A stretch of 64,000 bases of DNA, from positions 254,128-318,127 of the forward strand of contig NZ_JAIXCQ010000001.1 of the NCBI RefSeq assembly GCF_020297055.1, given 5' to 3'. The notes under the pieces were generated by a model. The model was not told the origin of the DNA, ran no database searches, and saw only the letters and a list, made by a program, of their open reading frames with translations. A program made the translations under genes and the position numbers. Shown piece after piece: positions 9,607 through 24,354 of this stretch (position 1 is the stretch's first letter; each line of letters begins with the position of its first letter). The stretch comes from Isoptericola luteus. Its GTDB lineage: Bacteria; Actinomycetota; Actinomycetes; Actinomycetales; Cellulomonadaceae.

Positions 9607-9612
9607 CAGAAT
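9607..9612 (+). promoter_or_regulatory. -10-like box of the displaced host promoter
   Basis: CAGAAT ends six bases before the GTG at 9619. The element-borne copy at the other end has CACAAT at 22243-22248 in the same position. Both fit a leaderless transcript. Confidence 0.45.
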
Positions 9613-9618
9613 GGCCGG

Positions 9619-9747
9619 GTGGCTTCCTCGTCTCGTCTGCCCCGTGTCCGCGCCTCCGAGCTGGTCGGGCGCGGCTGGCTCAACACCGGCGGGCGCGACG
9701 TCTCGCTCGCGGACCTGCGCGGCAAGGTCGTGGTGCTCGACTTCTGA
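9619..9747 (+). pseudogene. Displaced native 5' end of the thioredoxin/NHL-repeat gene
   Basis: GTG at 9619 opens a 42-residue frame ending in TGA 9745-9747. It matches the first 42 codons of the intact gene at 22255-24354: 98 of 128 bases and 35 of 42 residues are the same by my count. The next codon in the intact gene is TGG (Trp); here the mobile element has changed it to TGA. This is therefore the original chromosomal start, cut off from its body by integration at the TCGACTTCTG core. The product would be a useless fragment of the thioredoxin domain. Confidence 0.88.
9737..9746. other. attL core of the integrated element
   Basis: TCGACTTCTG is shared with 22373-22382 and marks where host gene sequence ends and element sequence begins. 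The serine integrase gene starts 33 bases further in. The true crossover dinucleotide lies within this string but cannot be fixed from one copy of each junction. Confidence 0.75.
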
Positions 9748-9766
9748 ACGTCGTTGACAGTAGCAC

Positions 9767-9772
9767 TAAACT
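9767..9772 (+). promoter_or_regulatory. -10-like box for the integrase gene
   Basis: TAAACT ends six bases before the integrase ATG at 9779. The -35 region would fall on the attL junction, so integration state could change integrase transcription. A TTGACA at 9754-9759 is too close to this -10 to be its partner. Confidence 0.4.
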
Positions 9773-9778
9773 TTCCCC

Positions 9779-11563
9779 ATGACGACGGACGCGCCGACCC
9801 CGGGAAGGTGCTGCGCCCTTTACGTGCGCCGCTCCTCCGCTGCGAAGACCGGAAACCGGACACTCGCCGAACAGGAGGCGGAGGCGCGCGCCCTCGCGAC
9901 GAGGGAGAGCCTTCACGTTGTTGAGGTCTACGCGGAGCGGGAGGGGACCGGAGCGTCCGCGCGGAGTGGCAAAAAGCGGCCTCAATGGGAGGCGGCCCTC
10001 GCCGCCCTCGACAAGGGCGACCGTTTCCGGACGGTGATTGCCTACGCCCTCGATCGCGCCGACCGTCGCGGCGCGGACACGCTCGGGAACATGCTCACCA
10101 AGCATGCCGCGACGGGCCGCCGCGTCTTGACGTGCGACGGCGTCGACACGTCCGACGAGAAGCAGCGCATGACGACCATCATTCGCGGCGAGGTGGCGCG
10201 CGATTACTCGGAGCGTCTCGGAGACAACATTGCCCGGACGAAGCGCTACCGCCGCGAGGAGGGTCGTTGGCTGGGTGGCCGCCCGCCCTGGGGGCTCCGC
10301 GTCGAGTCGGTGCCGGACCCTGTGACGGGTGACCCCGTAAAGACGGGTCGCTTGGTGCATGACCCTGTGACGTATCCAGAGGCGCGCAAGGCGGCCGAGG
10401 CTCTCCTTGCGGGCGCGTCCTTGTGGTCGGTCGTGAACGATTTGAACGCGCGCCAAGTGACGCCCCTTGCCTCCGGCGTCGAGTGGGGCGCGCGGGTCAC
10501 CCGCAAGGCTCGCAATGGCCCGGAGGACGTGGTGAGCGCGCCCCAGGGCTGGAGGGTGCCGAGCCTGGCGAACCTCGTACGTCAACCGTCGTGGGCAGGG
10601 CTGCAAGGCATCCGTCACCGCAAGCGGGATGGGGACGGGAAACTCCTGCCGTGGCCCGCTGTCGCCGAGGTCTACCGTTCGACGGAGACGGGCGAGCCCG
10701 TGAGCATCGGTGAAGGCGTGGTGACGCCCGAGGAGCGGCTTCTCATCCTCGCGCACCTCGATGCCCGGACGGCAGAGGCCGTTGGCGCGGTGCCGACCGT
10801 CCAGGGTCGGCCCCGTCGTCACGTCGCCAATCAACCAACGTCGCTTTTGGGTACACGCCTCGTGTGTTCCTCGTGCGGCTCCCGGTGCGTCGTGAACAAT
10901 GCGAAGAAGAAGGACGGCACGCGGTATCGCTATTACCGTTGTTCCTCCGCGGCCCAAGGCGGGAGCCGCTGCCCCGGCTTTTCGGCCCCGCTCCTCGACC
11001 TAGACGACTATGTCGGCTGGCGAGTGCGCTCGTACATTGCGAGCCTCACGCCGGAGGATGACGCCCTATGGGCCGCTTCCGCGGTGTGGGCCGCGACCGA
11101 GGATCCAGCCACTCGCGACGCGCTGAAGAGTGCGGAGGCCGCCTTGAACGCCGCCCGGGCGAATTTGGAGCGCATCCGGCGCTTGGTGGCCGCGGGTGTC
11201 TTCCTGGAGGAGGACGCCGCGGTCGAGATGCCCCGTGCCCGAAAGGCGGTCGAGGTAGCCGAGCGGGACGTCGCCGATGCTGGCGGAGGAACGCCCGACG
11301 TTGGAGCACTCCTCGACGCTGCGGGTACGGAGGATGCGTGGGAGGCCCTAGACACGCTCGCACGTCGCCGCGTGATCGAGTCGGTCGTGGAGCGCGTGAC
11401 CGTCACCCGTGCTGGTCGGCGCGGCGTGAGGTTTTCTCCGGAGCGCGTGACGGTCACCTGGGCGCATACCTCGGCGCCCATCGACGCTGATTCCACCGGT
11501 GCCCCGTCGCCCGTCTCGGATCGTCCGTGGGGAGAGAAGCGGCGAGGCGGCTTGAAACGCTGA
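9779..11563 (+). CDS. Large serine recombinase (integrase)
   Basis: A 594-residue phiC31-type serine integrase that catalyses attP x attB integration. The N-terminal resolvase domain (about residues 10-150) carries YVRRSS with Ser19 as nucleophile, then FRTVIAYALDRADRRG. The recombinase domain includes GRPPWGLRV, a zinc ribbon starts at Cys363/Cys366, and a coiled-coil region follows near residues 440-510. It sits just inside the left end of the element, the normal place. No recombination directionality factor is recognisable, but one of the small proteins of the element could serve. Confidence 0.96.
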   Translation: MTTDAPTPGRCCALYVRRSSAAKTGNRTLAEQEAEARALATRESLHVVEVYAEREGTGASARSGKKRPQWEAALAALDKGDRFRTVIAYALDRADRRGADTLGNMLTKHAATGRRVLTCDGVDTSDEKQRMTTIIRGEVARDYSERLGDNIARTKRYRREEGRWLGGRPPWGLRVESVPDPVTGDPVKTGRLVHDPVTYPEARKAAEALLAGASLWSVVNDLNARQVTPLASGVEWGARVTRKARNGPEDVVSAPQGWRVPSLANLVRQPSWAGLQGIRHRKRDGDGKLLPWPAVAEVYRSTETGEPVSIGEGVVTPEERLLILAHLDARTAEAVGAVPTVQGRPRRHVANQPTSLLGTRLVCSSCGSRCVVNNAKKKDGTRYRYYRCSSAAQGGSRCPGFSAPLLDLDDYVGWRVRSYIASLTPEDDALWAASAVWAATEDPATRDALKSAEAALNAARANLERIRRLVAAGVFLEEDAAVEMPRARKAVEVAERDVADAGGGTPDVGALLDAAGTEDAWEALDTLARRRVIESVVERVTVTRAGRRGVRFSPERVTVTWAHTSAPIDADSTGAPSPVSDRPWGEKRRGGLKR

Positions 11564-11976
11564 CGCCCTCTTGCGGCCCTGAACGAAGGCTCGACGCCCG
11601 ATCCCCGGGCGCCAGGCTTTCGTCGTCTCTACAGATTTGTCTGCATTTCCTAGGGCGTCATACGCGCCGGGTGCGGTCGCCGGGGAAGGCGTCCCGCTCA
11701 TCCTCGTTTACTCGGGTGTACCGAATGGCTACATCCCTATGTTCTCTCTCTAGACGACGACGTCTTGAGAGAGAACATAGGGATGTAGCCATTCCGTACA
11801 CCCCGCCATACCCCACCCGGCACCCGTTCCACGGCGACGCGGCGGGCGGCGTGCGAATTAGCACCGGAAGCCGGCTAGTGGCCGCTACGGGCAACCCCCT
11901 GCGCACTGTCTCTACGGAGAACGAATCGCGCGACGCTGCCGAGCGCCGCCCCGGCTGAACTTGGAGGCCACCCGCT
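11564..11976. other. Gene-free stretch after the integrase
   Basis: About 410 bases without a credible coding frame. It holds the long inverted repeat at 11714-11803 and otherwise shows nothing I can name. Frames reported here are broken or run through both arms of the repeat. Confidence 0.55.
11714..11803. repeat. Long near-perfect inverted repeat within the mobile element
   Basis: Arms 11714-11750 and 11767-11803 (37 bases each) are reverse complements with one mismatch. The 16-base centre itself has a 5-bp stem (AGACG/CGTCT, loop 11757-11760), giving one hairpin of about 90 bases. It is clearly AT-richer than its surroundings. No transposase or target-site duplication is visible. It could be a terminator, a replication structure of the excised element or an inserted palindrome. 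Confidence 0.8.
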
Positions 11977-12114
11977 ATGACACCGAGGCACTGCCACGCA
12001 CCGGACTGCACGGAGGGCCTCCTCCCAGGCGTTCGCCGTGATGCACGGTACTGCTCTTCACGTTGCAAGGCGGCCGCCGCCCGCGCTCGCAAAGTCACGG
12101 TCCTCGGCCTCTAA
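11977..12114 (+). CDS. Small zinc-finger protein
   Basis: A 45-residue protein with two cysteine pairs, CHAPDC (Cys6, Cys11) and YCSSRC (Cys26, Cys30), followed by a basic tail (KAAAARARK). This is the common small phage-type treble-clef pattern. GGAGG lies nine bases before ATG. A strong terminator hairpin follows. It probably binds nucleic acid or a protein partner; no function is assigned. Confidence 0.65.
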   Translation: MTPRHCHAPDCTEGLLPGVRRDARYCSSRCKAAAARARKVTVLGL

Positions 12115-12185
12115 TTCGCCCGCGCCGCTGGACCGGCGCGTTCCACTCGCTCTCCGCTGCCGCCACCCCAGCGTTGAGCGCGTCC

Positions 12186-12236
12186 AGGCCCCGGCCTCCC
12201 TCGTAGCGAGTCCAGTCGCTCGGGAGGCCGGGGCCT
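12186..12236 (+). terminator. Intrinsic terminator
   Basis: A 15-bp GC-rich stem (12186-12200 with 12222-12236) with an inner AGCGA/TCGCT stem, followed by TTTCTT. It ends the short zinc-finger transcription unit. Confidence 0.8.
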
Positions 12237-12321
12237 TTCTTCGTACCGGCGTTGAGCGGTACCACGCTCCGCCCCACTGACTTGACGCGGGAGACGCCCG
12301 CGGGAACGGAACGAGCCGACC

Positions 12322-12465
12322 ATGGCTGACGACGTCAACGAGACAGAGATCCCCGAGGAGTCCGTGGGAATGCTCCTAGCCCGAGCCGCCTTCGCGGAGC
12401 CAGGGAGCCCCGAGCACGCCGAGCACACCGAGGCCGCCGCGCGAGCCGCAGGCATCGTCCCGTGA
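12322..12465 (+). CDS. Small acidic protein of unknown function
   Basis: A 47-residue acidic protein (MADDVNETEIPEESVGMLLA). Its TGA overlaps the GTG of the next frame (GTGA), which is the main support for it. It is the first of a chain of short overlapping genes leading toward the portal gene. The ribosome site is weak. Confidence 0.5.
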   Translation: MADDVNETEIPEESVGMLLARAAFAEPGSPEHAEHTEAAARAAGIVP

Positions 12466-12791
12466 GCCGCTCCCTGACGTCCGGGTCATGGCACCGCTGG
12501 TCCCGGCCGTTCTACACGCCCGTGTCCCTGGCGTCCGGGACGCACGTCCCACGGGCCGACGCTCCCGAGCGTCCCGCCCGCCCCGTTCGTTCGGTGAGCC
12601 CGCCGAGCCCGGCGCCCTCCGACGCCCCATCGCTCCGGTTGCACCCGGGCGAAGGAGCCCTCCGCATCTGGAGCGTGCCGTCCCAGGACGACGGCCAGGC
12701 TCGCGGGCTGGACGCCGCCGAGGTCGTCCTAGAGCACCTTGTCTCGTCCTGTCCCACTCTCACCCGCAAGGAGGCCCACCGTGGCCGCTAG
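12462..12791 (+). CDS. Protein of unknown function
   Basis: A 109-residue frame, GTG start overlapping the previous stop, ending inside the next gene (11-base overlap). It is Pro/Ser/Arg-rich in the middle and ends with an amphipathic stretch (LDAAEVVLEHLVSSCPTLT). No family is recognised. Overlaps on both sides suggest a real operon member, but composition alone would not prove it. Confidence 0.45.
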   Translation: MSRSLTSGSWHRWSRPFYTPVSLASGTHVPRADAPERPARPVRSVSPPSPAPSDAPSLRLHPGEGALRIWSVPSQDDGQARGLDAAEVVLEHLVSSCPTLTRKEAHRGR

Positions 12792-13473
12792 CAAGTCCCG
12801 CAACATCACGACCGCGCCCGGCCTGGTGAGTCTGGCCGACCTTCTCCCGCCCACCGGTCACTACAACGTGAGTGTCGCCCTGCATCCGGAGTCCCTCCGC
12901 GAGGTTCTCTCTGGCGACCTCCGGAGGACCACCGCACTCCGCGACCTGCCGCCTGCGTTCAAGGATGGCCCGCTGGCCGCGCCCGGCACCGGCGAGGCCC
13001 TCCAGGCTCTCGCGGAGGAGCGCACGGCGCACAACGCCGCGGTCGCGGCTTTCCGCGCCGCCCGCGCCGACCGTGCTGCCCTGCCCTCGGACTCCACTCC
13101 CGGCGAGGTCGAGGGTGCCGAGGTTGCTCAGCGCGACGCCCGGCGCGCCGAGGTAGCGGCCGAGCGCGCGAAGGTTGGTGCCGAGCACGATGCGGTGCGC
13201 GTCATCTACGACGTGACCGAAGACCTTGTGACCCGACGCCGCGAAGCGTATGCCGCTGCTCGGGCGGTCGCCGTGAACCAGGCGACCGAGGCGATTGCAT
13301 CTCTGACCGAGGCGCTGACCGTCACCGCGGCTGACGAGTACGTCAACGGCGACCGCACCAAGCCTCGGACCTTCGTTGTGAACACCCCGGCCGGGAGCGA
13401 GCATCTTGCCGCGCTCATTCAGCACGTCGAGACGCTGAACGGCACCGCAGAGCCCGAGTGGAGGCAAATCTGA
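12781..13473 (+). CDS. Hypothetical protein with central coiled coil
   Basis: A 230-residue protein, GTG start preceded by AAGGAGG. The N-terminal 70 residues are mixed (LVSLADLLPPTGHYNVSVAL), the centre (about residues 80-150) is Ala/Arg/Glu-rich and looks helical or coiled-coil, and the end has strand-like segments (PRTFVVNTPAGSEHLAALI). No catalytic motif is visible. Its place two genes before the portal would suit a head-assembly, scaffolding or packaging helper, but that is only positional. Its stop overlaps the next start (TGATG). Confidence 0.65.
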   Translation: MAASKSRNITTAPGLVSLADLLPPTGHYNVSVALHPESLREVLSGDLRRTTALRDLPPAFKDGPLAAPGTGEALQALAEERTAHNAAVAAFRAARADRAALPSDSTPGEVEGAEVAQRDARRAEVAAERAKVGAEHDAVRVIYDVTEDLVTRRREAYAAARAVAVNQATEAIASLTEALTVTAADEYVNGDRTKPRTFVVNTPAGSEHLAALIQHVETLNGTAEPEWRQI

Positions 13474-13616
13474 TGCCCGTCGGTTTCGACCGTGCCGAGC
13501 GCGTCGCCACCGCTCTCCGCCAGCGCGAAGAGGACCACGCTCGCGCGGAGCGTGCCGCTCTCGGCGAGATGACTGCCGAGGACCTGGACGCGATCGCGGC
13601 GGCTGCCCGCCGCTGA
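13473..13616 (+). CDS. Small helical protein of unknown function
   Basis: A 47-residue protein (MPVGFDRAERVATALRQREE) coupled by TGATG to the preceding gene. It is almost wholly predicted helix with alternating charges. Too short for a family call. Confidence 0.5.
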   Translation: MPVGFDRAERVATALRQREEDHARAERAALGEMTAEDLDAIAAAARR

Positions 13617-13698
13617 CCCCCGGGGGAGGCGCGACGCCGCGTCTCCACTCCCGGAGTGGCATGGCACCTCCCTGTACGCGCGGGTTTGGAGGTCGCAA

Positions 13699-13974
13699 TC
13701 AAACCCGCCGCACCGCGGACGCCCAGACCCACGCGAACCCCTCCCGTCCGCCCGGATCGATGTAGCGAACGTGGACCTGCGGGTGATCGCACACCGTCCA
13801 TGCATCTGCCTCCGCTGTCTCGGCGAGGAACTCCCTACCGCGCCCGCTCACGACCCACACCCGCACCGGCACCGGCTCCGAAGGCCGCGCCTGGCGTGCA
13901 CCGTCGCGCGCCGACCGCGGCGCGTCCGTCGCGTGCTCGTGCAGCGGCACCTGTTCCAAGCCCTTCGAACGCAC
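13699..13974 (-). CDS. SOS-box-controlled small protein of unknown function
   Basis: A 91-residue protein on the opposite strand to its neighbours. The C-terminal half reads like a compact globular domain (VWVVSGRGREFLAETAEADAW, then VHVRYIDPGGREGFAWVWAS). I do not recognise the family. The GTG start at 13974 follows a TAGGCT box by six bases (leaderless), and a perfect actinobacterial LexA box spans the start point. An overlapping Pro/Arg-rich frame on the plus strand is a shadow. Damage-induced expression suggests a role in induction, excision or interference with the host or helper. Confidence 0.62.
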   Translation of the reverse strand: MRSKGLEQVPLHEHATDAPRSARDGARQARPSEPVPVRVWVVSGRGREFLAETAEADAWTVCDHPQVHVRYIDPGGREGFAWVWASAVRRV

Positions 13975-13980
13975 GTTCGA
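13965..13980. promoter_or_regulatory. LexA (SOS) box
   Basis: TCGAACGCACGTTCGA fits the mycobacterial SOS box TCGAAC-N4-GTTCGA exactly. It covers the predicted transcription start and GTG of the minus-strand gene, next to its -10 box (TAGGCT at 13981-13986 on the minus strand). It also lies 55 bases upstream of the portal start on the plus strand, so it may control both directions. Confidence 0.75.
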
Positions 13981-14034
13981 AGCCTACGCCTGCCCGGAGG
14001 GCACGCCCTCCGGCCCCGCCCACTGGAGAATTCT

Positions 14035-15456
14035 GTGACAACCACCGCCCGAGCCCGTGAACTTGTCGAGATGCTCGACGCGGAGAAGCGCCCAGGCGCC
14101 CGGCTCGACCTCGCGCGCCGCTATGCCTACACGGGTGACCACGACCTGCCGTACATGCCCCGTCGCGTCGGCCGGGAGTTCCGCGCCCTCGCCGAGTCCT
14201 CCCGTGAGCACCGGATCCCTGCCGTCCTCCAGACCCTTTCGGCGCCCCTTCGAGTCGTCGGCTTCCGCACTTCCGGGACAAGCGAGAACGCTGCCCCGTG
14301 GGCAAACTGGCAGGCGAACGGCCTGGACGCCAGGCAGGACGGCGTGCACTTCGACGCTCTCGCGGCTGGGGTGTCCTACGTCCGCGTCGTGCCCAGCGGC
14401 AACCGCGGCGACGTCGCCGCCATCACCCCGTGCGGGTTCGATTCCGTCCTCGCCCTCTACGCGAGCGCTGACGCCGAGTGGCCCATTGAAGCTATCCACC
14501 ACGTGGGCCGCGGCACCGACTCCAACGGAGTCACCCGGAACATCTACGACGTCTGGACGCCGTCACACCGCCAGCGCTTCGAAGAGGCCGACCGATCCAC
14601 CAACACCGACGGCCTCGCTGCTAGCGAGCCGGTGCCACACGGCCTCGGCGTCGTGCCCTTCGTCCGCTTCGTTGAGCGGTTCGGCGCCCCCTGCCAAGGC
14701 CTCGCGTCGACGCTGAAGCCCCAGGCCGATCGCTTGAACCGTGCTCTGCTCTCCCTGGAGGTCGTCCAGCAGTACGCCTCCTTCCGCCAGCGTTGGGCGA
14801 CCGGCCTTGCCATCCCGGTGGACGAGGAGACAGGCGAGCCGCTGGAACCGTTCGAGGCAGCCGTGAGCCGGCTATGGGTCTCGGACTCAACGGATGCCAA
14901 GTTCGGCGACTTCGCCCAGAGCGACCCGAGCGGCGTTCTGGCGAACATCGCCGACGCACGGACCGCCATGGCGGTCCTCGCGGGAGTCCAACCGGGCCTC
15001 GTGGAGGGTCTGGACGTCGCGGGCGCCAAGGCAGGCGCCGCGGCGACGTCGTCCAGCCTGATGGATCGCCGGATCCGCTCCCTGTCGGCTTCGTTCGGCG
15101 AGGCCTGGGAGCAAGTCCTCCGCCTCGCGGCCAAGGTCACCGGCGACTCCCGCGCCGCCTCTGATAATGCCTCCCGCGTCACCTGGGAGACCGTCGAAGC
15201 CGAGTCCGTCCAGGCCACGGTGACCGCCCTAGCGACCGCAGTCGGAGCCCTCGGCCTTCCGCCGGAGGCGACTTGGCCCGCCCTGGTTGCCACGATCCCC
15301 GGCGCCACTGCGGATGACCTGGAGACCTGGCGCGCCCTGGCCGCCGAGCGCGACGGGACCGTGAGGCTCGCCTCCGACTACGTCCGTGGCGGCACGACCG
15401 CGGCCGAGCCCTCCGAACCCGCCGACGGCGCGGCGGTCCTCTCCGAGGCTGCGTGA
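14035..15456 (+). CDS. Phage portal protein, SPP1 Gp6-like
   Basis: A 473-residue portal. The portal ring sits at one capsid vertex and is the channel for DNA packaging and exit. The sequence has the family layout: N-terminal clip region (YAYTGDHDLPYMPRRVGREF), crown/wing strands, LASTLKPQADRLNRALLSLEVVQQYASFRQRW, and the long stem helix near SSLMDRRIRSLSASFGEAWEQVLRLA. The length is normal. GTG start with GGAG upstream. It is coupled to the MuF-like gene by GTGA. No terminase gene precedes it, which is abnormal for a functional phage head module. Confidence 0.85.
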   Translation: MTTTARARELVEMLDAEKRPGARLDLARRYAYTGDHDLPYMPRRVGREFRALAESSREHRIPAVLQTLSAPLRVVGFRTSGTSENAAPWANWQANGLDARQDGVHFDALAAGVSYVRVVPSGNRGDVAAITPCGFDSVLALYASADAEWPIEAIHHVGRGTDSNGVTRNIYDVWTPSHRQRFEEADRSTNTDGLAASEPVPHGLGVVPFVRFVERFGAPCQGLASTLKPQADRLNRALLSLEVVQQYASFRQRWATGLAIPVDEETGEPLEPFEAAVSRLWVSDSTDAKFGDFAQSDPSGVLANIADARTAMAVLAGVQPGLVEGLDVAGAKAGAAATSSSLMDRRIRSLSASFGEAWEQVLRLAAKVTGDSRAASDNASRVTWETVEAESVQATVTALATAVGALGLPPEATWPALVATIPGATADDLETWRALAAERDGTVRLASDYVRGGTTAAEPSEPADGAAVLSEAA

Positions 15457-16238
15457 CACCCGAGGAAGTCGCCGCCTGGGAGGCGCTCCGAAAGGCCGTC
15501 GCCGCCCGGTCCGACCGGGTCGGCGAAGCCCTCGGCGCCCTCTGGCGAGGCCGAGTGGCGCCTGGGACCTTCGGGTCCTCGATGTCCCGGGCGCGGTTCC
15601 TCGCGGACGTCGTGGAGGTTGTCCTGGTCGGATACGGCGACAACGCCGCCGACGCCCTCCGCGCGTACGACCTCGCGCGCAAGGCTGCGGGGCTCGGCCC
15701 CCTGCCCGCGGATTTCGCACGCGTCGCGACTGCCGACCCTGGCGCCATCCTCGCGGCCGTGGATGAGACCGTGACTCGACGCCTCGCCTCGGAGGCCACG
15801 TCGAGCCTGACGACCGCCCAGGCGGTCCTCGCGGCGGCCTCGGCCAGGGCGGCCACTCTCGCCGCCTACGGCGCCACGGACACGGTCACGACCGCGGTTC
15901 GTCGTGACCCCCGTGCGGTCGGCTGGGAGCGTTTCGACGACGTCGGCACGACGTGCCACCGATGCCTAGTCCTCATCGCCCGCGGGCCGGTGTACGACGT
16001 GCTTTCGGGATCCTTCGCCCGACACCCTGGCTGTACCTGCGGCGCCCGGGCGGTCTTCCGGGACCGCGGACCCTCCCCGGAGGCCCGCGAGGCGTACGGG
16101 CTCTATTTGGCCGTCGACCGTCAAGAATTCGTCTACCCCGACGGGCACCGCTTCGGGGGGCAGCCGCTATCGCTCCGCTCTGTCCTCGCGGCCGAGCGCG
16201 CCGGAACGCTGGACGCCTACCGCCCGCCCACGGCGTGA
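15453..16238 (+). CDS. MuF-like minor head protein
   Basis: A 261-residue protein directly after the portal, the conserved position for MuF/VG15-type proteins that enter the capsid or assist its assembly. The C-terminal half has the cysteine/histidine pattern of the family (TTCHRCLVLIARGPVYDVL, then HPGCTCGARAVF), probably metal-binding. The N-terminal half is helical. GTG start overlaps the portal stop. A terminator follows at once, so the structural block ends here without protease, scaffold or major capsid genes. Confidence 0.78.
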   Translation: MTPEEVAAWEALRKAVAARSDRVGEALGALWRGRVAPGTFGSSMSRARFLADVVEVVLVGYGDNAADALRAYDLARKAAGLGPLPADFARVATADPGAILAAVDETVTRRLASEATSSLTTAQAVLAAASARAATLAAYGATDTVTTAVRRDPRAVGWERFDDVGTTCHRCLVLIARGPVYDVLSGSFARHPGCTCGARAVFRDRGPSPEAREAYGLYLAVDRQEFVYPDGHRFGGQPLSLRSVLAAERAGTLDAYRPPTA

Positions 16239-16240
16239 CA

Positions 16241-16276
16241 AAGGCCCCGACCCTCACACCCGAGGGCCGGGGCCTT
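16241..16276 (+). terminator. Terminator after the head genes
   Basis: A 15-bp stem (16241-16255 with 16262-16276, one mismatch), AAGGCCCCG type, immediately after the MuF stop. It isolates the head genes from the oppositely transcribed cargo block. Confidence 0.75.
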
Positions 16277-16283
16277 CCGCCGT

Positions 16284-16586
16284 TTACACGCCCGGATCTG
16301 GCAGGAGCACCGAACGGCCCCACAACTGCCAATCGCCGTCGCTGCGGTGTTGCCAACCGTCCATCTCCATGGCTCGTTCGAAACCATGCTCGCCAATCCG
16401 AGACAGCAGCCCCGCGGCCCACGACCGCACGGTGTCCACGCGCTCGTCTGGGATATCGGGGTTCACCGTGAGCCAGTAGGTCACTCCCTCGGGCCGCTTG
16501 CCCACGAGGATGCACGCATCGCGGTCCGGCATCTCGCGCCACGCAGCCGGGTCGTGCGGCTCAATCTGTACGTCGCTGGGATCCAT
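16284..16586 (-). CDS. Hypothetical protein, element cargo
   Basis: A 100-residue protein (MDPSDVQIEPHDPAAWREMP). It contains strand-rich text (GVTYWLTVNPDIPDERVDTVRSWA) and many tryptophans. Start 16586 is chosen because GATGAT lies six bases upstream (leaderless pattern); a longer frame to 16640 adds 18 residues of poor quality. It is convergent with the MuF gene across the terminator. No family recognised. Confidence 0.58.
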   Translation of the reverse strand: MDPSDVQIEPHDPAAWREMPDRDACILVGKRPEGVTYWLTVNPDIPDERVDTVRSWAAGLLSRIGEHGFERAMEMDGWQHRSDGDWQLWGRSVLLPDPGV

Positions 16587-17308: not shown

Positions 17309-17411
17309 GTTCGAAGTATGGCGGCGATGCTCTTGCTCGCCAAGGTTGAAGCGCGGCCTTCGGGCACTCGGTTGCGTCCGGTGCGTCAGACGCTGCCCAT
17401 ATGCTCGCCTC

Positions 17412-17606: not shown

Positions 17607-17663
17607 CCTCGGCTTCGAAAGTTCATCCTTTCTGCCCGGCGCCCGGAGTTCTACTGTCCGTCC

Positions 17664-17984
17664 GTGCCTAACTCCGGCGGTCGGCGACTCGCGATAGTCG
17701 CCCTTGCGTGCTCGTTGACGGTCGGCCCTGCCGCGGGAGCCGTCGTTGGGTACGCGGTGGCCGACGCGAAGGCGTCGCAAGGGCCGGAGGGGCCAGCGGG
17801 ACCGCAGGGCACGAGGGGCGCAACGGGTGAGTCTGGTCCCCAAGGTCCGCCCGGGGTGTCCCTGTCCGGCGCTGTTGTCCTCAAGAGTCGATTCGGCTCC
17901 TGCCCTGACGGCACTTGGTGGCTCATCGGCGATTCGGTCTATATCGCCGATGGCGAGGAGCGCGACCTCTGCGAGGTTGAGTAG
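17664..17984 (+). CDS. Collagen-like secreted or anchored protein
   Basis: A 106-residue protein with a basic N-terminus, a hydrophobic segment at about residues 8-33 (signal or anchor), then eight Gly-X-Y triplets at about residues 40-64 (GPEGPAGPQGTRGATGESGP) and a small C-terminal domain with two cysteines. Collagen-like proteins occur in phage tail fibres and on bacterial surfaces. Here there is no tail module, so a lysogen surface role seems likelier. The GTG start follows TACTGT by six bases. Confidence 0.7.
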   Translation: MPNSGGRRLAIVALACSLTVGPAAGAVVGYAVADAKASQGPEGPAGPQGTRGATGESGPQGPPGVSLSGAVVLKSRFGSCPDGTWWLIGDSVYIADGEERDLCEVE

Positions 17985-18046
17985 TCAAATTGCGACGAGT
18001 GTGCAAGCCGTGTGCCCGCGAAGTGCGAGATTTTGGGCGGTCCGGC

Positions 18047-18712
18047 CTAACGCTGAGGTTCAATATCTTCCAGACCTTGAAGCCCTAGATGTCGCCTCGC
18101 TTCATCGACGAGCCGATTCACCGCTTTGCGAATCTTCTTTATCTCGTCGCTGGAGAGGTCTTCGTGATCGTCGAAGTTCAGCACTCTGCTCGCGGTTGTG
18201 ATTAGGTTGTCAAGTGCATCGCAAATGTCTCTTGATGCCACGAGACTGATGCTTGCGGTCAGCGTGAAGGCCCGCTCCCAGGCGGCCCTGCTGCGCTTCT
18301 CGCTCTTCTTGTAGATGGGAGATTCTGCGCGGCTGGTATTGACCGTGTCACGGATTAGCTTTCGCATTTCCTCACTCGGATCAGCCGTGAGGTTGTGTCC
18401 GATGACAACCTCCGTTGCCTCTCCCAATTTCTGTTCAAGAACCCAGACCATACCTTTTGTAAAGGCTCCTCGTCGGGAGCGCTCTTTAATCAGGGTTTCG
18501 ACAACTCCAACGAGTTCGGCGACGTACTGTCGAATGTCGCCGTCCCAGCGGATCGCTTCCGATCGTCCCTGCCTGCGTCCTTCGAGAATCCAATTAAACC
18601 AAAAGCCCAGCGCTCCACCGACTATCAGGAAGGATCCTGCGATCGCGGGCACCCCCCACCACGGCGCCGCAGTGCTCTGGGCGGCGGCCATGAGGCTAGA
18701 CATGGGCGACAT
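18047..18712 (-). CDS. Membrane-anchored helical protein, element cargo
   Basis: A 221-residue protein with one N-terminal transmembrane helix (about residues 19-42, VPAIAGSFLIVGGALGFWF) and a charged, helix-rich cytoplasmic part ending DEIKKIRKAVNRLVDEARRH. Start 18712 follows TATCTT by six bases. Composition is AT-richer than the chromosome, like the HEPN gene. The architecture resembles membrane-anchored phage-exclusion or defence accessory proteins; no specific family is recognised. Confidence 0.65.
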   Translation of the reverse strand: MSPMSSLMAAAQSTAAPWWGVPAIAGSFLIVGGALGFWFNWILEGRRQGRSEAIRWDGDIRQYVAELVGVVETLIKERSRRGAFTKGMVWVLEQKLGEATEVVIGHNLTADPSEEMRKLIRDTVNTSRAESPIYKKSEKRSRAAWERAFTLTASISLVASRDICDALDNLITTASRVLNFDDHEDLSSDEIKKIRKAVNRLVDEARRHLGLQGLEDIEPQR

Positions 18713-18845
18713 AGGTGGAAGATAGCAGTTGAGTCATGAGGCGTCGACCGAAACGAATTGTATTCCCCGCCTTACGCCAGGCCCCGACTAATGGCGCGAT
18801 GGTCCACGACGAGAGGCCCGCATCGGCGCGGGCGGCGATGGGAGG

Positions 18846-19150
18846 CTAGGAAGCCACGGTCCGCAACCGCCGCGCGACAGCCGACGCATGGCACCCGAAC
18901 GCCGCGCCGACCTCGCGCAACGTCGCGCCTCCGTCACGCATGGCGCGCATGGCCGCGACGTCGCCCAGGGCCGCAAACTCGCCGAATTCGTCGCCCTCTG
19001 CTCGGCGCTCACGATCACCGGCGCGCCGTCCGTAACGGGCGCCGCAACACGTGCACCTTGTGGTACAGCCAGTGTTGTTGCGAGGACGTGCGACGCTTGC
19101 GAGCGTCCGAACCCGCTGCCCCGCACACGCAACGCGAGCCCGGCGAACGT
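18846..19150 (-). pseudogene. Broken gene for a helix-turn-helix protein
   Basis: The frame ending at TAG 18846-18848 encodes GDVAAMRAMRDGGATLREVG followed by AAFGCHASAVARRLRTVAS, very like the C-terminus of the DUF2637 protein encoded at 19990-20604 (DIAAMLAMRDAGTSLRTIGE, then RFGVHASTVSRRLAAVAR). Upstream in the same frame is a Cys-rich stretch (CTTRCTCCGARYGRRAG) but no ATG, GTG or TTG start that I can find. A frameshift or decay is the likely reason. Other frames here are lower quality. Confidence 0.45.
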
Positions 19151-19283
19151 GTAGGCGAGAGTTCTGGGGGCGACCATTGCGGGTTCCGTCTGCGCGAGCC
19201 TTGGGCCAACGGCGACACGTCGCGACATCGGCGAGGGCCGCCGCCGAGGCTTTCCTCGACGACGACCCTCGCGATGAACGACC

Positions 19284-19556
19284 TCAGGCCGCCTTGTCGA
19301 ACCACTCCCACATGTCCTTGTCGAGCCATCCCTGTCGGGCCTGGCCCGTGATGTCGACGCAGAACAGGCTGGTCGACTTGTCCATGACGGCACGAAGCGT
19401 GTCGGACACCGAGTACGGCGTGAGCCCGACGCCGCTGACGGCCCACGTGGAGTCCATGAGGTGGGCCCACCCCGGGAACTTCTTGATCGCCTCGTGCACA
19501 GCCTTGTAGTCCTGGCCGGGCTTGTTGAGGTCGTACGTGATGAGGATGGTGGCCAT
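19284..19556 (-). CDS. Stand-alone Cas2/SinR-like small protein
   Basis: A 90-residue protein starting MATILITYDLNKPGQDYKAV, with a STWAVSG segment and ending GWLDKDMWEWFDKAA. This matches my knowledge of a widespread family with a Cas2/VapD-like ferredoxin fold, often labelled SinR family; the opening beta strand with Tyr-Asp is typical. It is not part of a CRISPR locus: no repeats, Cas1 or other cas gene is present. Members occur near toxin and defence genes; activity is unproven. A GGAGGT site precedes the ATG. Cargo of the element. Confidence 0.72.
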   Translation of the reverse strand: MATILITYDLNKPGQDYKAVHEAIKKFPGWAHLMDSTWAVSGVGLTPYSVSDTLRAVMDKSTSLFCVDITGQARQGWLDKDMWEWFDKAA

Positions 19557-19989
19557 GCGCCTACCTCCGATCCGTGAGGCGGCTCATGGCTGCTGCACGC
19601 GGTGCGCCGTTGCGCGATCCGCGTTCGCCGGGTCTAGGGTGTGATTGCCTACCAAGCGAATCACCCGCTCGTCCCGCCAGGCTTCGGCCATTCCCGCGGT
19701 GGGATGAGCGCCGCCTCACTGCGTGGAGTCTGGCATCTGTCACTGACACCCAGAACGCGACACGCCGAGGCGACGTCCAAAAGCCCGGGCCTGCCGTGTG
19801 GCAGAGTCCGGGCTTTTGTAGTTGAGGCCGGGGTATCTCGCTACGCTGCCCGCAGGATCGATGCAGGTCTACGCGGCATCGTTCACCGTGGGTGTCCCAA
19901 TCGGCACGCGTCACGCTCTGTCGGCCCCATCTAGCACCCGACAGCCCTCGAATCTCGCCGAGGCGATGTCTGACGGGGCCACCGGGCCC
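19557..19989. other. Gene-free stretch between the Cas2-like gene and the DUF2637 gene
   Basis: About 430 bases. It contains the bidirectional hairpin at 19779-19817 and presumably the promoter of the Cas2-like gene. The frames through it are unlike proteins. Nothing else is recognisable. Confidence 0.5.
19779..19817. terminator. Bidirectional terminator hairpin
   Basis: AAAAGCCCGG (19779-19788) pairs with CCGGGCTTTT (19808-19817), with an inner CTGCC/GGCAG stem. T-runs occur on both strands. It ends the minus-strand DUF2637 operon and shields the Cas2-like gene. Confidence 0.75.
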
Positions 19990-20604
19990 TCACCTAGCGA
20001 CTGCGGCGAGGCGCCGCGACACGGTCGAAGCATGGACCCCGAATCGCTCGCCGATCGTTCGAAGCGACGTTCCTGCGTCGCGCATCGCGAGCATGGCCGC
20101 GATGTCGTCCGCGGGGTCGTCGTCTCTCTCGCTCACGGCGTCTGCAACGTCGTCCGCGGGGGTGCTGCACTCGGCCGCCTCCGGCGCGTCGCTGGCCAGT
20201 TGTCTCGCCTCGGGAGCAATTAGCGACGCGAGGGTGTGCGTCGTGACGAGCACGACAACTGGCGCGAGCCCGACGACCGCAACGCCCACCGCGACGCGCA
20301 CTGCCTCGCCGACGTGCAGGCCGAGCCCGTGCGCGACGTTCGCCGCAACACTGACGACCGCCAGGACGCCCAGGCTCGCCCACTCCACGCGCGCCCCGCG
20401 CCCCTGCCCCCGGCGCACGAGCGCGGCGTGCGAGAACGCGAGCGCGCCGCCGTCGGCGAGCACGGGCGCACACCACGCAAGCGGACCGCGCACCCCCGCC
20501 CATCCCGCAACGGCCACGAGAGCCGACGCCGAGAGTGCGAACGAGACCGCGGCGACGATCCCGACGAGTGCCGCCACGGCCCACACGATGCCCTTGTTGC
20601 TCAC
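19990..20604 (-). CDS. DUF2637 / SpdB-like membrane protein with C-terminal helix-turn-helix
   Basis: A 204-residue protein with four hydrophobic helices (residues 5-30, about 40-55, 75-95, 100-125) and a C-terminal DNA-binding tail (MLAMRDAGTSLRTIGERFGV, then HASTVSRRLAAVAR). DUF2637 proteins are typical of actinobacterial conjugative elements, plasmids and phages, where related Spd proteins act in intramycelial spread. GTG 20604 has a GAGGGGAAG site; GTG 20619 is the alternative. It is last in a minus-strand operon after the winged-helix gene. Its tail also occurs in the broken gene at 18846. Confidence 0.78.
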   Translation of the reverse strand: MSNKGIVWAVAALVGIVAAVSFALSASALVAVAGWAGVRGPLAWCAPVLADGGALAFSHAALVRRGQGRGARVEWASLGVLAVVSVAANVAHGLGLHVGEAVRVAVGVAVVGLAPVVVLVTTHTLASLIAPEARQLASDAPEAAECSTPADDVADAVSERDDDPADDIAAMLAMRDAGTSLRTIGERFGVHASTVSRRLAAVAR

Positions 20605-20615
20605 GTCTTCCCCTC

Positions 20616-21656
20616 TCACGCGCCGACCGGCGCGGCGTACTTACTTCCCTGTCGGGCCGCGGCGATCGCCGCCCGGATGCTGTCCCGTGCGATGCGGGCC
20701 GCGGGGGAGTGCGTCGTGGCCCTGGCCGCCCGCTCGGCGACACGCTCGGCTGCCCTTCGTCGCTCCCGCTCGGTCCGCGCCTCGGCGTCCCTGGTGGCCC
20801 GTTCCGCGGCCGTAGCAAAGCCCCTGGAGCGTCCAGCGCGGATCCGGGCACCGAGCCAGCCCCACACGTCCCGCACGCCCTCCAGAGCCCACACACGACC
20901 GGCGCCCCCGGCCTCGGCGATCCTGAAGACGTCGGCCACCCTCGCGGTCTCGACGGCCTCGCCAAAAGCCCGAGCGAGCACGTCCGCCAGCCCGCCGAGG
21001 TGGCGCCCCTCCGGCGCGAGACCTGGCGACCGTCGGGCGACCTCGGCCGTGAGCCGCTGGAGCGCGAGGGACCGCGGAGCGGTGTCCCTGGCCGTCGTCT
21101 GACGCTTGCGCTTGGTCCCGGCGCGACGCGCCTGGGGGAGTTGAGACTTCCTGGAGATACCCGAGACCTCTACGAGGTCCGGGTGGGCGGCACCGATCGG
21201 CTCATGCGTGAGCGCCCACACCGACGCCGTCACGATGCCGCCACGCCCCAGCGCACGCCGCGCCTGCCGCTCGGCGCGCGTCAGGTGGCGACCACGCACG
21301 GCCTCAACCGCGAGCCCCTCGACCGCGAGCCACGCCCGCACGTTGCGGACGGACCGCTCCGACACCTCGGCCCGCTCGGCGATCGTCTCGACCGCCAGCG
21401 CAACACCGCGCCCGGTATGGCCGTCGGCTGCCGCGGCGAGTACCTCGGCGACCGCGAGGCGCACCCGAGCCCGCCGAGGCTGCCCAGCCGCCCGCTCGGC
21501 GACGAATGCGAGCCACGTGCGCCGCGAGGCCCACACCGGGACGTGCGAGTAGGCGCCCGGCTCCACAACGTCATGCCAAGCCCGACGACGCCCCCGACGG
21601 GACGCCGACGGGCGGCCCGCCCCCGAAGTGGGAGCGGGCGAACCCGCCGCGCTCAC
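20616..21656 (-). CDS. Winged-helix replication- or regulation-like protein
   Basis: A 346-residue basic protein. A winged helix-turn-helix lies around residues 65-125 (TIAERAEVSERSVRNVRAWL). After a linker there is a helical region and a long Arg/Ala-rich helix (ARTERERRRAAERVAERAAR). Such proteins often sit next to DUF2637 genes in actinobacterial mobile elements and are called replication initiators or DNA-binding proteins. No Walker or HUH nuclease motif is visible, so initiation would be by DNA binding only. GTG start overlaps the previous stop; the ORF ends 11 bases before the DUF2637 start. Confidence 0.65.
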   Translation of the reverse strand: MSAAGSPAPTSGAGRPSASRRGRRRAWHDVVEPGAYSHVPVWASRRTWLAFVAERAAGQPRRARVRLAVAEVLAAAADGHTGRGVALAVETIAERAEVSERSVRNVRAWLAVEGLAVEAVRGRHLTRAERQARRALGRGGIVTASVWALTHEPIGAAHPDLVEVSGISRKSQLPQARRAGTKRKRQTTARDTAPRSLALQRLTAEVARRSPGLAPEGRHLGGLADVLARAFGEAVETARVADVFRIAEAGGAGRVWALEGVRDVWGWLGARIRAGRSRGFATAAERATRDAEARTERERRRAAERVAERAARATTHSPAARIARDSIRAAIAAARQGSKYAAPVGA

Positions 21657-22159
21657 GCGGCGACGGCCTCGGAGAAGAACGCGGCGCCGAGGCGAACGCG
21701 CTCCACGACCACGGCCAGCACGCGAGCCCAGGCCGCCGCATCCTGGAGCGAGAGCCCCGCGTCCCGCACGTCGTCACGCTCGGCGAGCACGAGGAGGACG
21801 CGCCCGTGGAGTACACCGGAGACCGGGAGCCTGGTTGTCTCCTGGGCGTCCACGACGGCGCGGCGGAGGAGTCCATCCGCCTGGGCGACCTCCTCGGCGA
21901 GGCTCGGCGCTGGGAGGCTCTTGGGCTCGGCCGCCGTCGTGTGGTCGTCGGCCTCCCACGAGTCCGACCACTCGGCCTGCCAATCGGCGATCGTCGCGAC
22001 CGCTTCGGCGACCTCGGCCGCCCCGGCCTCGGTCGGGTCGAACGCCGACGCGCCGCACTGGAGGCAGTCACGCCGGTACTGGTCACGCCGCATCGTCGCG
22101 GCGTGCAGGCACTCCAGCGACTCCGCGCCAGACGCATAGAAGAAAGTAGGGTTGTGCAC
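21653..22159 (-). CDS. Hypothetical protein, first gene of the element's minus-strand operon
   Basis: A 168-residue acidic, helical protein. It begins VHNPTFFYASGAESLECLHA and has Cys at the CLHAATMRRDQYRRDCLQCG segment, perhaps a metal site. GTG 22159 has a GAGGAG site. It is divergent from the element-borne start of the NHL gene, sharing about 95 bases of promoter region, and its stop overlaps the winged-helix gene. Function unknown. Confidence 0.65.
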   Translation of the reverse strand: MHNPTFFYASGAESLECLHAATMRRDQYRRDCLQCGASAFDPTEAGAAEVAEAVATIADWQAEWSDSWEADDHTTAAEPKSLPAPSLAEEVAQADGLLRRAVVDAQETTRLPVSGVLHGRVLLVLAERDDVRDAGLSLQDAAAWARVLAVVVERVRLGAAFFSEAVAA

Positions 22160-22242
22160 GTCGGTGTCTCCTCACCGGCCATGCCCTCGGACGGTTGCCG
22201 CCGTCGCGAGGGCTCCTTCGTCGGTGACCCAACGCGGTGCCG

Positions 22243-22248
22243 CACAAT
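22243..22248 (+). promoter_or_regulatory. Element-borne -10-like box driving the rebuilt NHL gene
   Basis: CACAAT ends six bases before the GTG at 22255, matching the native CAGAAT at 9607. The promoter of the host gene is therefore now supplied by the element. Confidence 0.45.
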
Positions 22249-22254
22249 GGGCCT

Positions 22255-24354
22255 GTGACCGCTACATCCCGCCTGCCCCGCGTCCGCGCATCCGAACTCG
22301 TCGGGCGCGGCTGGCTGAACACCGGCGGTCGGGACTTGTCACTGGCCGATCTGAAGGGCCGTGTCGTTGTCATCGACTTCTGGACCTTCTGCTGCATCAA
22401 CTGCCTGCACGTGCTGGACGAGCTGCGCGAGCTGGAGGAGCGGCACCGCGACGAGCTGGTGATCGTCGGTGTCCACTCGCCCAAGTTCGCGCACGAGGCG
22501 GACCCGGTGGCGCTCGCGGCCGCCGTCGAGCGGTACGAGGTGCACCACCCCGTCCTCGACGACCCGGAGCTCGTCACCTGGGGCGCTTACACCGCGCGCG
22601 CCTGGCCGACGCTCGTCGTCGTCGACCCGGAGGGGTACGTCGTCGCGCAGATGGCGGGGGAGGGGCACGCGTCCGCGATCGAGGCGATCGTCGAGGAGCT
22701 GGTCGCCGAGCACGAGGCCAGGGGCACGCTGCACCGCGGCGACGGCCCGTACGTGCCGCCCGAGCCGACCGCGGGCACGCTGCGGTTCCCCGCCAAGGCC
22801 GTCACGCTGCCGGGCGGGAACCTGCTGGTCGCGGACGCCGGGCACCACTCGCTGGCCGAGCTCGCCCCCGACGGCGAGACGCTCGTGCGGCGCATCGGGT
22901 CCGGGGAGCGAGGCCTGGTCGACGGCGCGCCCGACGGCTCCGGCTCCTCGACGGCACGGTTCAGCGAGCCGAACGGCCTGTGCCTCGTGCCCGCCGGGCT
23001 GCGGGCGTCGCTCGGCTACGACGTCCTCGTCGCGGACACCGTGAACCACGCGCTGCGCGGCGTGCGCCTCGCCGACGGTGCGGTGACGACCGTGGCCGGC
23101 ACGGGCGAGCAGTTCATGGTCGGCGGCCAGGAGAACGTCGTGCGGGACATCGAGCCCGGTGCGCCCGGCGAGACCGGTCCGTTCGACGACGGCGCCTCGT
23201 ACGCCGCGCGCCGCGTCCGGCTGTCCTCGCCGTGGGACGTCGAGTGGTCCGGAGCGTTGGGTGCGTTCGTCGTCGCGATGGCGGGCAACCACACCCTGTG
23301 GTCGTTCGACCCCGTGGGCGGCAGGGTCCGGCTGCTGGCCGGGACGATGAACGAGGGCCTGGAGGACGGCCCCGGCGACGGCGCGTGGTTCGCCCAGCCG
23401 TCGGGCCTCGCTCCGGCGTCCGGCGCCGACGTGCCCGGTGGCCTGTGGCTCGCCGACGCGGAGACGTCGGCCCTGCGGCTCGTCACCCCCGACCTGTCAG
23501 GGTCACCTGCTGGTTCTGATGCTCCTGGTCCTGACAACTCAGAAGCCCGGGAGCTGTCAGGTTCTCGTGCAGGTTCTGATGGTCCTGGGCCTGACAGCTC
23601 GGCCGGGTCGGGCGGGGTGACCGTCACGACCGTCGTCGGGCAGGGGCTGTTCGACTTCGGCCACCGGGACGGCCCGGCCGCCGACGCGCTGCTGCAGCAC
23701 CCGCTCGGCGTCGCCGCCCTGCCGGACGGCAGCGTCGTCGTCGCCGACACGTACAACGGCGCGCTGCGCCGCTACGACCCCGCCACAGGTGAGGTCACGA
23801 CCGTCGCGACGGGCCTCGCCGAGCCCAGCGACGTCGTCGTGCAGGTCGCGGACGACGCGGGGTCGCCCGCCGTGCACCTCCTCGTCGTGGAGTCCGCCGC
23901 GCACCGGCTCACGCGGGTCGCGCTGCCGGCCGACCTCGCCGGCCGGGTGCTCGACGGGGGCGCGCACCGCGTCGCCCGGCCGGCCACCGAGGTCGCACCC
24001 GGCCCGCTGCGGCTCGACGTGCCGTTCGTGCCCGCGCCGGGGCAGAAGCTCGACGACCGCTGGGGCCCGTCCACCGAGCTGCGGGTCAGCGCCACCCCGC
24101 CCGAGCTGCTGCTCGACGGCGCCGGTGACGGCGTGGACCTGGTGCGCGACCTCGTGCTCAACCCCGAGATCTCCGAGGGCGTGCTGCACGTGACGGCGAA
24201 GGCGGCGTCGTGCGACGTCGTGCCGCTGGGCCCGGACGGCGAGCCCGACCCGGACGTCTTCCCCGCCTGCCACCTGGCGCAGCAGGACTGGGGCGTGCCG
24301 GTGCGGGTCACCCCGACGGGTGAGGCGGCGCTCAGCCTTCCCCTGCGCGGCTGA
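22255..24354 (+). CDS. Thioredoxin-domain NHL-repeat protein (5' end replaced by the element)
   Basis: A 699-residue protein. Residues 1-150 form a TlpA/thioredoxin-like domain with WTFCCINC as redox motif; the rest is a beta-propeller of NHL repeats (VTLPGGNLLVADAGHHSLAE and similar), like NHLRC2. It probably acts in redox or scaffold functions; no signal peptide is seen. The first 42 codons come from the mobile element and the rest from the host; the joint is at 22373-22382, inside VIDFW. A Ser/Gly/Pro-rich insert at about residues 415-450 is made of two 60-bp-spaced palindromic units. Confidence 0.88.
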   Translation: MTATSRLPRVRASELVGRGWLNTGGRDLSLADLKGRVVVIDFWTFCCINCLHVLDELRELEERHRDELVIVGVHSPKFAHEADPVALAAAVERYEVHHPVLDDPELVTWGAYTARAWPTLVVVDPEGYVVAQMAGEGHASAIEAIVEELVAEHEARGTLHRGDGPYVPPEPTAGTLRFPAKAVTLPGGNLLVADAGHHSLAELAPDGETLVRRIGSGERGLVDGAPDGSGSSTARFSEPNGLCLVPAGLRASLGYDVLVADTVNHALRGVRLADGAVTTVAGTGEQFMVGGQENVVRDIEPGAPGETGPFDDGASYAARRVRLSSPWDVEWSGALGAFVVAMAGNHTLWSFDPVGGRVRLLAGTMNEGLEDGPGDGAWFAQPSGLAPASGADVPGGLWLADAETSALRLVTPDLSGSPAGSDAPGPDNSEARELSGSRAGSDGPGPDSSAGSGGVTVTTVVGQGLFDFGHRDGPAADALLQHPLGVAALPDGSVVVADTYNGALRRYDPATGEVTTVATGLAEPSDVVVQVADDAGSPAVHLLVVESAAHRLTRVALPADLAGRVLDGGAHRVARPATEVAPGPLRLDVPFVPAPGQKLDDRWGPSTELRVSATPPELLLDGAGDGVDLVRDLVLNPEISEGVLHVTAKAASCDVVPLGPDGEPDPDVFPACHLAQQDWGVPVRVTPTGEAALSLPLRG
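22373..22382. other. attR core of the integrated element
   Basis: TCGACTTCTG, the same ten bases as at 9737-9746. Left of it is element sequence, right of it the body of the host gene. The distance between cores makes the element about 12.6 kb. Confidence 0.75.
23494..23597. repeat. Two palindrome-ended units inserted in the NHL gene
   Basis: Units of about 43 bases start at 23494 and 23554, exactly 60 apart. Each begins CTGTCAGG and ends CCTGACA, so the ends are inverted repeats. They are in frame and encode SGSPAGSDAPGPDNS and SGSRAGSDGPGPDSS, and are less GC-rich at codon position 3 than the rest of the gene. Confidence 0.65.

What the first reader, a model, noticed from the sequence alone, without database searches (positions are those of the whole stretch)
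9607..22400. Mobile element that rebuilds the gene it interrupts with its own 5' end
Seen: the first 42 codons of a thioredoxin/NHL gene occur twice, at 9619-9746 (dead, followed by TGA) and at 22255-22382 (joined to the gene body), with a serine integrase just inside the left copy and the same TCGACTTCTG at both joints. The copies have the same length, 98/128 identical bases and 35/42 identical residues; most differences are silent. Serine integrases need only a short core, so this long, protein-level conservation is not an att repeat. Inference: the element carries a substitute start, promoter box and exon so that insertion keeps the host gene working and puts it under element control.
Basis: partly seen in the sequence, partly recalled or inferred. 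Interest (0 to 1): 0.85.

Follow-up and report, generated by a model that had tools for sequence, protein, structure and literature searches.

The report
Mobile element that heals its target
A phage-derived element has inserted into the front of a thioredoxin-like gene and carries its own spare copy of that front part, so the gene stays whole; relatives in other species sit at the same place, and one that lacks the spare part leaves the gene without its beginning.

Summary
In detail: a 158-nt direct repeat (9592-9749 / 22228-22385) with a serine integrase starting 33 bases inside the left joint. In 17 of 17 same-genus relatives the gene front is uninterrupted and matches the left copy better, so the left copy is the host's and the right copy came with the element. 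The three other integrase relatives found in 221 family genomes all lie at this gene: a 3.3-kb element rebuilds its front, a 53-kb prophage does not and leaves it headless, one is a remnant beside an intact gene. Four more genomes have inserts without a detected integrase there; one holds a single GmrSD-like gene. All five element exons lack a lysine kept by 56 of 57 natives. In three of them the last 25 nt fit the attP palindrome better than any of 57 natives, so the exon may double as one attP arm; a fourth does not, and the fit is not specific to the own partner arm. Rebuilding a 5' end is known for SXT/prfC and dusA elements (tyrosine integrases). New are the serine integrase, the exonless sister and the possible exon/attP overlap. 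'Element control' is not shown.

The parts
9592..9746 (+). Left copy: native upstream box, GTG start (9619) and first 42 codons of the NHL gene, now a dead stub ending in TGA (9745-9747)
9745..9746 (.). Likely crossover dinucleotide TG at the left joint (its partner is 22381-22382)
   Evidence: inferred from seven pairs of junctions; G134 read by eye
9747..22382 (.). Integrated element, about 12.6 kb
9747..9771 (+). Left-end arm of attP (P')
   Evidence: inferred
9779..11563 (+). Serine integrase, 594 aa
   Evidence: Pfam Resolvase 1.1e-15 and Zn_ribbon_recom 8.9e-8; phrog_95 integrase 4.2e-57
13771..15456 (+). Phage portal protein (SPP1 gp6-like)
15453..16238 (+). Phage head protein (VG15 / head maturation protease family)
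19990..20619 (-). DUF2637 / HTH protein
   Evidence: 40% over 109 aa to a gene near the right end of the G134 prophage
20616..21656 (-). Probable DNA-binding or replication protein of the right end
   Evidence: weak phrog_391 hit 0.0045; 38% over 282 aa to the right-end gene of the G134 prophage
22183..22213 (+). Hairpin between the element's genes and the substitute exon, also present in G134 and G139
   Evidence: (z -4.34 for 22170-22235)
22228..22254 (+). Substitute upstream region with the -10-like box CACAAT (22243-22248)
22255..22380 (+). Substitute front: start codon and 42 codons carried by the element
22356..22380 (+). Last 25 nt of the substitute front, possible P arm of attP
   Evidence: inferred
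22381..24354 (+). Native body of the thioredoxin/NHL (NHLRC2/SOQ1-like) gene

Best explanation
A large serine integrase inserts its element into the coding sequence of an NHLRC2-like thioredoxin/NHL gene, at codon 43, just before the CCxNC motif (shown by comparison). The element's right end brings a promoter-like box, a start codon and 42 codons that replace the severed front in frame, so an open gene is rebuilt while the native front stays behind as a dead stub (shown by sequence; expression not tested). The substitute front is part of the element; whether all such fronts descend from one mobile exon is supported by a tree but not settled. Its last ~25 nt may also serve as one arm of attP, which would explain residue changes seen only in element exons (inferred). 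The likely benefit is that integration does not cost the host this gene, so the element is tolerated (inferred).
For: 17 of 17 same-genus relatives have the front continuous with the body and match the left copy better. Protein kept between the copies beyond chance. The three other integrase relatives in 221 family genomes lie at the same gene. G139 rebuilds the front in a 685-aa open frame; G134, without an exon, has a TAG three codons before the joint. All five element exons lack the Lys kept by 56 of 57 natives and by all 7 stubs. Palindrome fit of the exon arm above all 57 natives in G000, G139 and G132. The five exons form one side of a branch, support 96/88.7, against 57 natives.
Against: No excision, attP, attB or transcript was measured. 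G032's exon arm fits no better than natives (23 of 57 as good), resampling codons for the same protein gives P 0.12, 0.27, 0.12 and 0.80, G132 exceeds the best native by only one base, and some exon arms match the left arms of other inserts better than their own (G139: 16 with G085, 14 with G046, 13 own). By raw identity the exons G000, G139 and G032 are nearer to their best native (82-87 of 105) than to one another (77-79), and the native nearest to two of them (L075) is the one native without the Lys. With stubs added the exons fall into two groups, on long branches. G132 and G054 lack either upstream box.
Confidence: 0.82

Rival explanations
1. Old gene duplication: the two fronts come from a host duplication and the integrase element landed between them by chance.
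For: Both copies are host-like sequence. Two other inserts (G046, G085) have fronts close to the host's own, and G085 has a 564-bp tandem duplication.
Against: No second front copy in the 17 same-genus relatives at E <= 0.01 apart from paralogues in long open frames. The stub ends at the integrase-side joint in G000, G139 and G134.
Confidence: 0.04
2. The right front was taken from a host by homologous exchange, perhaps more than once, and drifted; there is no single travelling exon lineage. The gene is still healed.
For: Exons are nearer by raw identity to some native genes (82-87 of 105) than to one another (77-79 among G000, G139, G032); with stubs added they form two groups.
Against: One branch with support 96/88.7 against 57 natives; the shared loss of the Lys; GC3 of 0.60-0.80 against a native mean of 0.946, though the native minimum is 0.743, so two of five lie inside the native range.
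Confidence: 0.35
3. The element uses its own promoter to bring the gene under element control.
For: The upstream sequence differs from the native one beyond 27 nt. In a known parallel, dusA expression fell after insertion of IMEVchUSA3 (PMC8409611, passages).
Against: The upstream box is of the common native kind, the ORFs nearest the right end run away from the exon, and a hairpin lies between.
Confidence: 0.15

Closest known systems
dusA-specific integrative elements (IMEVchUSA3; Farrugia family)
   Same: [quoted passage not shown] leave the old 5' end behind (PMC8409611 and PMC4482086, passages)
   Different: Tyrosine-type integrase (recalled for the dusA family; not stated in the passages seen), Proteobacteria, another target gene; no exonless sister or exon/attP overlap in the passages seen
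SXT/R391 ICE in prfC
   Same: [quoted passage not shown]
   Different: Conjugative element, tyrosine integrase (recalled), gammaproteobacteria
Streptococcal ICEs in rumA
   Same: Serine integrase in a coding gene; integration swaps the end of the target gene (PMC4701971, passages)
   Different: The 3' parts of rumA and of the integrase gene are exchanged in another frame, so the C-terminus changes; no homologous substitute
phiJoe / SCO2603-type elements of Streptomyces
   Same: Actinobacterial serine integrases at one coding site occupied by elements of varying size and content (PMC5311408, passages)
   Different: Lie 74 bp from the 3' end of the ORF; no rebuilding in the passages seen
e14 / phage 21 in icd
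   Same: Prophage supplies a substitute gene end with many silent changes (recalled; no passage read, one search gave a listing only)
   Different: 3' end, tyrosine integrase, enterobacteria (recalled)

Membership tests
Large serine integrases | N-terminal resolvase domain and zinc-ribbon recombinase domain | tested here: met
   PF00239 1.1e-15, PF13408 8.9e-8; phrog_95 over residues 10-563
Large serine integrases | Middle Recombinase domain (PF07508) | tested here: inconclusive
   Not listed at E <= 0.01, though phrog_95 spans the region
Large serine integrases | One specific site, 2-bp crossover, short attP and attB | tested here: inconclusive
   Four of four family members at E <= 1e-20 lie at this gene; the crossover TG is inferred from joints
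Integrative elements that rebuild the 5' end of their target (SXT/prfC, dusA type) | Insertion in the 5' coding part of a gene | tested here: met
Integrative elements that rebuild the 5' end of their target (SXT/prfC, dusA type) | New in-frame N-terminus supplied by the element | tested here: met
Integrative elements that rebuild the 5' end of their target (SXT/prfC, dusA type) | Working promoter supplied by the element | not testable with these tools
   A -10-like box is present; expression needs an experiment
dusA-specific integrase family | Integration into dusA | tested here: not met
   The target is a thioredoxin/NHL gene and the integrase is a serine recombinase
Complete prophage | Terminase, capsid and tail genes | tested here: inconclusive
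   Of 10 element ORFs scanned only a portal and a head protease gave structural hits; further ORFs of the element were not scanned
Phage satellite | Helper-dependent packaging | not testable with these tools
   About 12.6 kb with few structural genes would fit; a decayed prophage fits as well

The most novel reading that the evidence does not exclude
A mobile exon: one 42-codon gene front has travelled with serine-integrase elements across several genera, under double selection to encode the host protein and to be one arm of attP. It heals the gene at each insertion, and it also lets small cassettes without an integrase (such as a single GmrSD-like gene) settle at the same codon, leaving stubs behind.
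Probability: 0.4. Interest if true: 0.78.

Novelty: new variant of a known kind. Interest (0 to 1): 0.6.

Why it matters
Related integrases at one codon exist here with and without a healing exon, so the cost of cutting a gene and the gain from healing it can be compared. It offers a direct test of whether one DNA stretch can be coding sequence and recombination arm at once, and it names a possible seamless landing site for genetic tools in these bacteria. It also shows that the start of a chromosomal gene can be of phage-element origin.

Tried and rejected
Named relatives of the integrase: scans of genome contigs with the protein and with the three-sequence alignment, and of viral contigs, confirmed none. 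The phage collection gave 16 records, all below 60% identity and none covering 80% of the query; 12 of them are phages of Mycolicibacterium aichiense of about 11 kb. The exon (68 aa with flank) has no match at E <= 0.01 in 50,697 phage records. The order sample (396 genomes, E <= 1e-40) and the class sample (394 genomes, E <= 1e-60) gave only the own genome, but only 3 candidates per genome were scored there, and 6 per genome in the family search, so relatives may be missed.

A DNA pattern of the exon without mismatches hit 99 of 396 order genomes; only the own genome had two hits. It would miss decayed stubs such as that of G132.

G046 and G085 inserts (about 0.55 kb) share 24 of 32 nt at their left ends and a 38-nt stretch at 79%, but keep native codons at the Lys and do not show the palindrome. 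I set them aside as another kind of insert, unexplained. G085's two stubs are copies in a 564-bp tandem duplication. G077 was suspected of an insert; its front has a disturbed frame and one TGA but no stub-and-insert was seen. Stubs G132L and G085L have length changes and were left out of the tree.

The fold of L101:17095-17170 (z 0.58) missed the hairpin because my coordinates began too late; folds the right stretch. The G134 frame printed was wrong, and the G134 right joint was split one base off; statements on G134 rest and on reading by eye. The Pfam rows for small insert ORFs gave nothing for the 111-aa ORF of G032 and a sub-cut-off hit for G085.

Papers: searches (listings with abstract starts); passages read in PMC8409611, PMC4482086, PMC4701971, PMC5311408. 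No listing showed a serine-integrase element with a homologous substitute 5' exon, or this NHL gene as a target, but only the listed top rows were seen and most subscription papers are not held, so absence is weak.
Full report
What is there. The first 42 codons of a thioredoxin/NHL gene stand twice, 12,636 bases apart. The copies match at 98 of 128 bases in one register and at 28-44 when shifted by 1-3. They differ at 30 of 126 coding bases but at only 7 of 42 residues, 21 of the 30 in third positions; none of 20,000 random placements did as well. The whole repeat is 158 nt at 75%, 9592-9749 and 22228-22385, the longest direct repeat found between 9500 and 22500, and takes in the upstream box and the start. 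The left copy ends in TGA. A 594-aa serine integrase begins at 9779.

Which copy is native. In all 17 other genomes of the genus the front runs without a break into the body (in G010 the gene runs off a contig further downstream). At the 30 positions where the copies differ, the relatives agree with the left copy at 11-24 and with the right at 3-11; all 17 lean left, the smallest margin being 2. So the left copy is the host's severed front and the right copy came with the element. A search of the same 18 genomes with the first 62 residues at E <= 0.01 found a stub only in the window's genome; the other extra matches lie in long open frames and look like paralogues or weak hits.

The site in related genomes. 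In 221 family genomes the integrase has three other relatives at E <= 1e-20, 47-58% identical (6 candidates per genome scored). All three lie at this gene. In G139 a stub is followed by the integrase and, about 3.3 kb on, by a new front joined to the body. In G134 a stub ending in TAA is followed by the integrase and a 53-kb prophage; of 10 of its ORFs scanned, 8 had PHROG hits, among them terminase, portal, head maturation protease, major head protein, tape measure and minor tail proteins. Its right end has no exon: an in-frame TAG stands three codons before the joint and the gene is headless. G139 and G134 share their right ends at 88.6% over 210 nt and part just after a hairpin. In G054 an interrupted integrase lies directly before an intact gene, and no stub was found.

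Other inserts. The 62-residue front was found in 198 of 221 family genomes at E <= 1e-9 (weaker rows were cut from its table). A second look at 39 of them at E <= 0.001, namely those outside the genus with more than one match and two with a poor best match (G139 having been read), gave stubs in G032, G046, G085 (two) and G132. None of these four is among the integrase-bearing genomes. G132's insert holds one 526-aa ORF with the GmrSD N-terminal domain (5.2e-26) and a hit to the PADLOC candidate PDC-M55C (3.8e-61). Its left end agrees with G134's at 20 of 32 nt; leaving out the first 8, 13 of 24, a value that 0.3% of positions in the insert also reach. It may have been moved by such an integrase in trans; this is inference. 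In all, eight of 221 genomes, in four genera, have an insert or remnant here; in seven the gene front is whole, in one it is missing.

The exon as part of the element. I read 57 native genes (17 of the genus; 40 chosen by me from the places listed for the family). Against them the five exons of G000, G139, G132, G032 and G054 form one side of a branch, support 96/88.7. With stubs and two further inserts added they fall into two groups, three at 95/93 and two at 98/69, with a warning of long branches and only 105 columns. Against one lineage: exons G000, G139 and G032 are nearer to their best native (87, 82 and 83 of 105) than to one another (77-79), and the native nearest to G000's and G032's exons, L075 of G168, is the one native that lacks the Lys discussed below. 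Exon GC3 is 0.60-0.80; the native mean is 0.946 and minimum 0.743, so G000 and G032 lie inside the native range. Stubs of G000, G139 and G032 match a native at 97-100 of 105, while exons match their own stub at 75-83. Either one travelling exon or repeated capture followed by fast change remains possible.

The exon as attP arm. The junctions agree best with a crossover at TG of the Trp codon. If so, the last bases of the exon are the P arm. In exonless G134 the two arms form a clear palindrome, 17 of 25. The exon arms reach 14 (G000), 13 (G139) and 12 (G132). In none of these four cases does any of 57 native arms reach the value (best natives 10, 12, 9, 11); the own stubs give 8, 9, 7 and 5, and shifted registers at most 10. 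Against it: G032 gives 9, which 23 of 57 natives equal; some exon arms fit the left arm of another insert better than their own (G139 with G085 16 and with G046 14); and resampling codons for the same protein gives P of 0.12, 0.27, 0.12 and 0.80, so residue changes carry much of the excess (all). The plainest residue change is at codon -7: Lys in 56 of 57 natives and in all 7 stubs (in G085 one codon nearer the joint because of a lost codon), but Arg, Cys, Ser, Arg and Arg in the five exons, four of them as NGT. If the exons share an ancestor this is fewer than five independent events.

Expression. Of 57 natives 43 have NA[CG]AAT and 11 have GTT[CG]ACT, 4-9 nt before the start, and 3 have neither; in 5,000 random 75-nt stretches of the window the rates are 0.0012 and 0. 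The exons of G000 and G139 have the first kind, G032's has the second like its own stub and 3 of 4 sampled relatives of its genus, G132's and G054's have neither. This suggests nearly leaderless transcripts. The ORFs near the right end of the window's element run away from the exon, and a hairpin (22170-22235, z -4.34) that is also found in G139 and G134 with changes on both stem sides (by eye) lies between. I see no sign of element control, but nothing was measured.

The gene. The protein matches chloroplast SOQ1 (1.8e-73), NHLRC2 (1e-50) and DipZ (7.9e-22) and has NHL and thioredoxin-like Pfam domains. The joint lies at WTFCCINC, so G134's insertion removes the front of the thioredoxin fold.

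Comparison with what is known. [quoted passage not shown] Farrugia et al. report replacement of the dusA 5' end and predicted promoters (PMC4482086, passages). So the principle is known. Different here: a serine integrase, an exonless sister prophage at the same codon, inserts without a detected integrase at that codon, and a possible overlap of exon and attP arm. I rate it a new variant of a known kind. No tool named the host; its relatives resemble Cellulomonadaceae in number and size, which is recall and was not tested.

The probability of the most novel reading was lowered from 0.45 to 0.40 and that of the best explanation set at 0.82, because the recount brought out the raw identities, the cross-matches and native L075, which weaken the single-lineage and attP-arm parts. 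The core reading, that the element brings a substitute gene front, is not touched by them.

Noticed in passing
window 11714-11803: Near-perfect inverted repeat just after the integrase: arms of 43 nt, 95% complementary, 4 nt apart. Possibly a terminator or a replication or packaging signal.
   Followed up: no
L055 (G132) 1497-3077: A single GmrSD-like / PDC-M55C ORF is the only ORF of 150 aa or more lying wholly on the plus strand in the 1.7-kb insert at the same codon, which suggests a one-gene defence cassette.
   Followed up: partly
L054 (G085): Two stubs in a 564-bp tandem duplication before the NHL gene; the insert's left end resembles that of G046. Another kind of insert, unexplained.
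   Followed up: partly
window 23486-23600: Inside the NHL gene, two 55-nt repeats (82%) with TGTCAGG/CCTGACA ends; relatives' alignments break at about residues 413-450, so this stretch looks inserted or fast changing.
   Followed up: no
window 18868-18966 and 20012-20110: A 99-nt direct repeat at 74% inside the element; the second copy lies in the DUF2637/HTH gene, perhaps a decayed duplicate of its HTH part.
   Followed up: no
L075 (G168): The one native gene of 57 with Arg (CGG) instead of Lys at codon -7 is also the native nearest to the exons of G000 and G032. It may be a source of such exons or a gene once healed by one.
   Followed up: no
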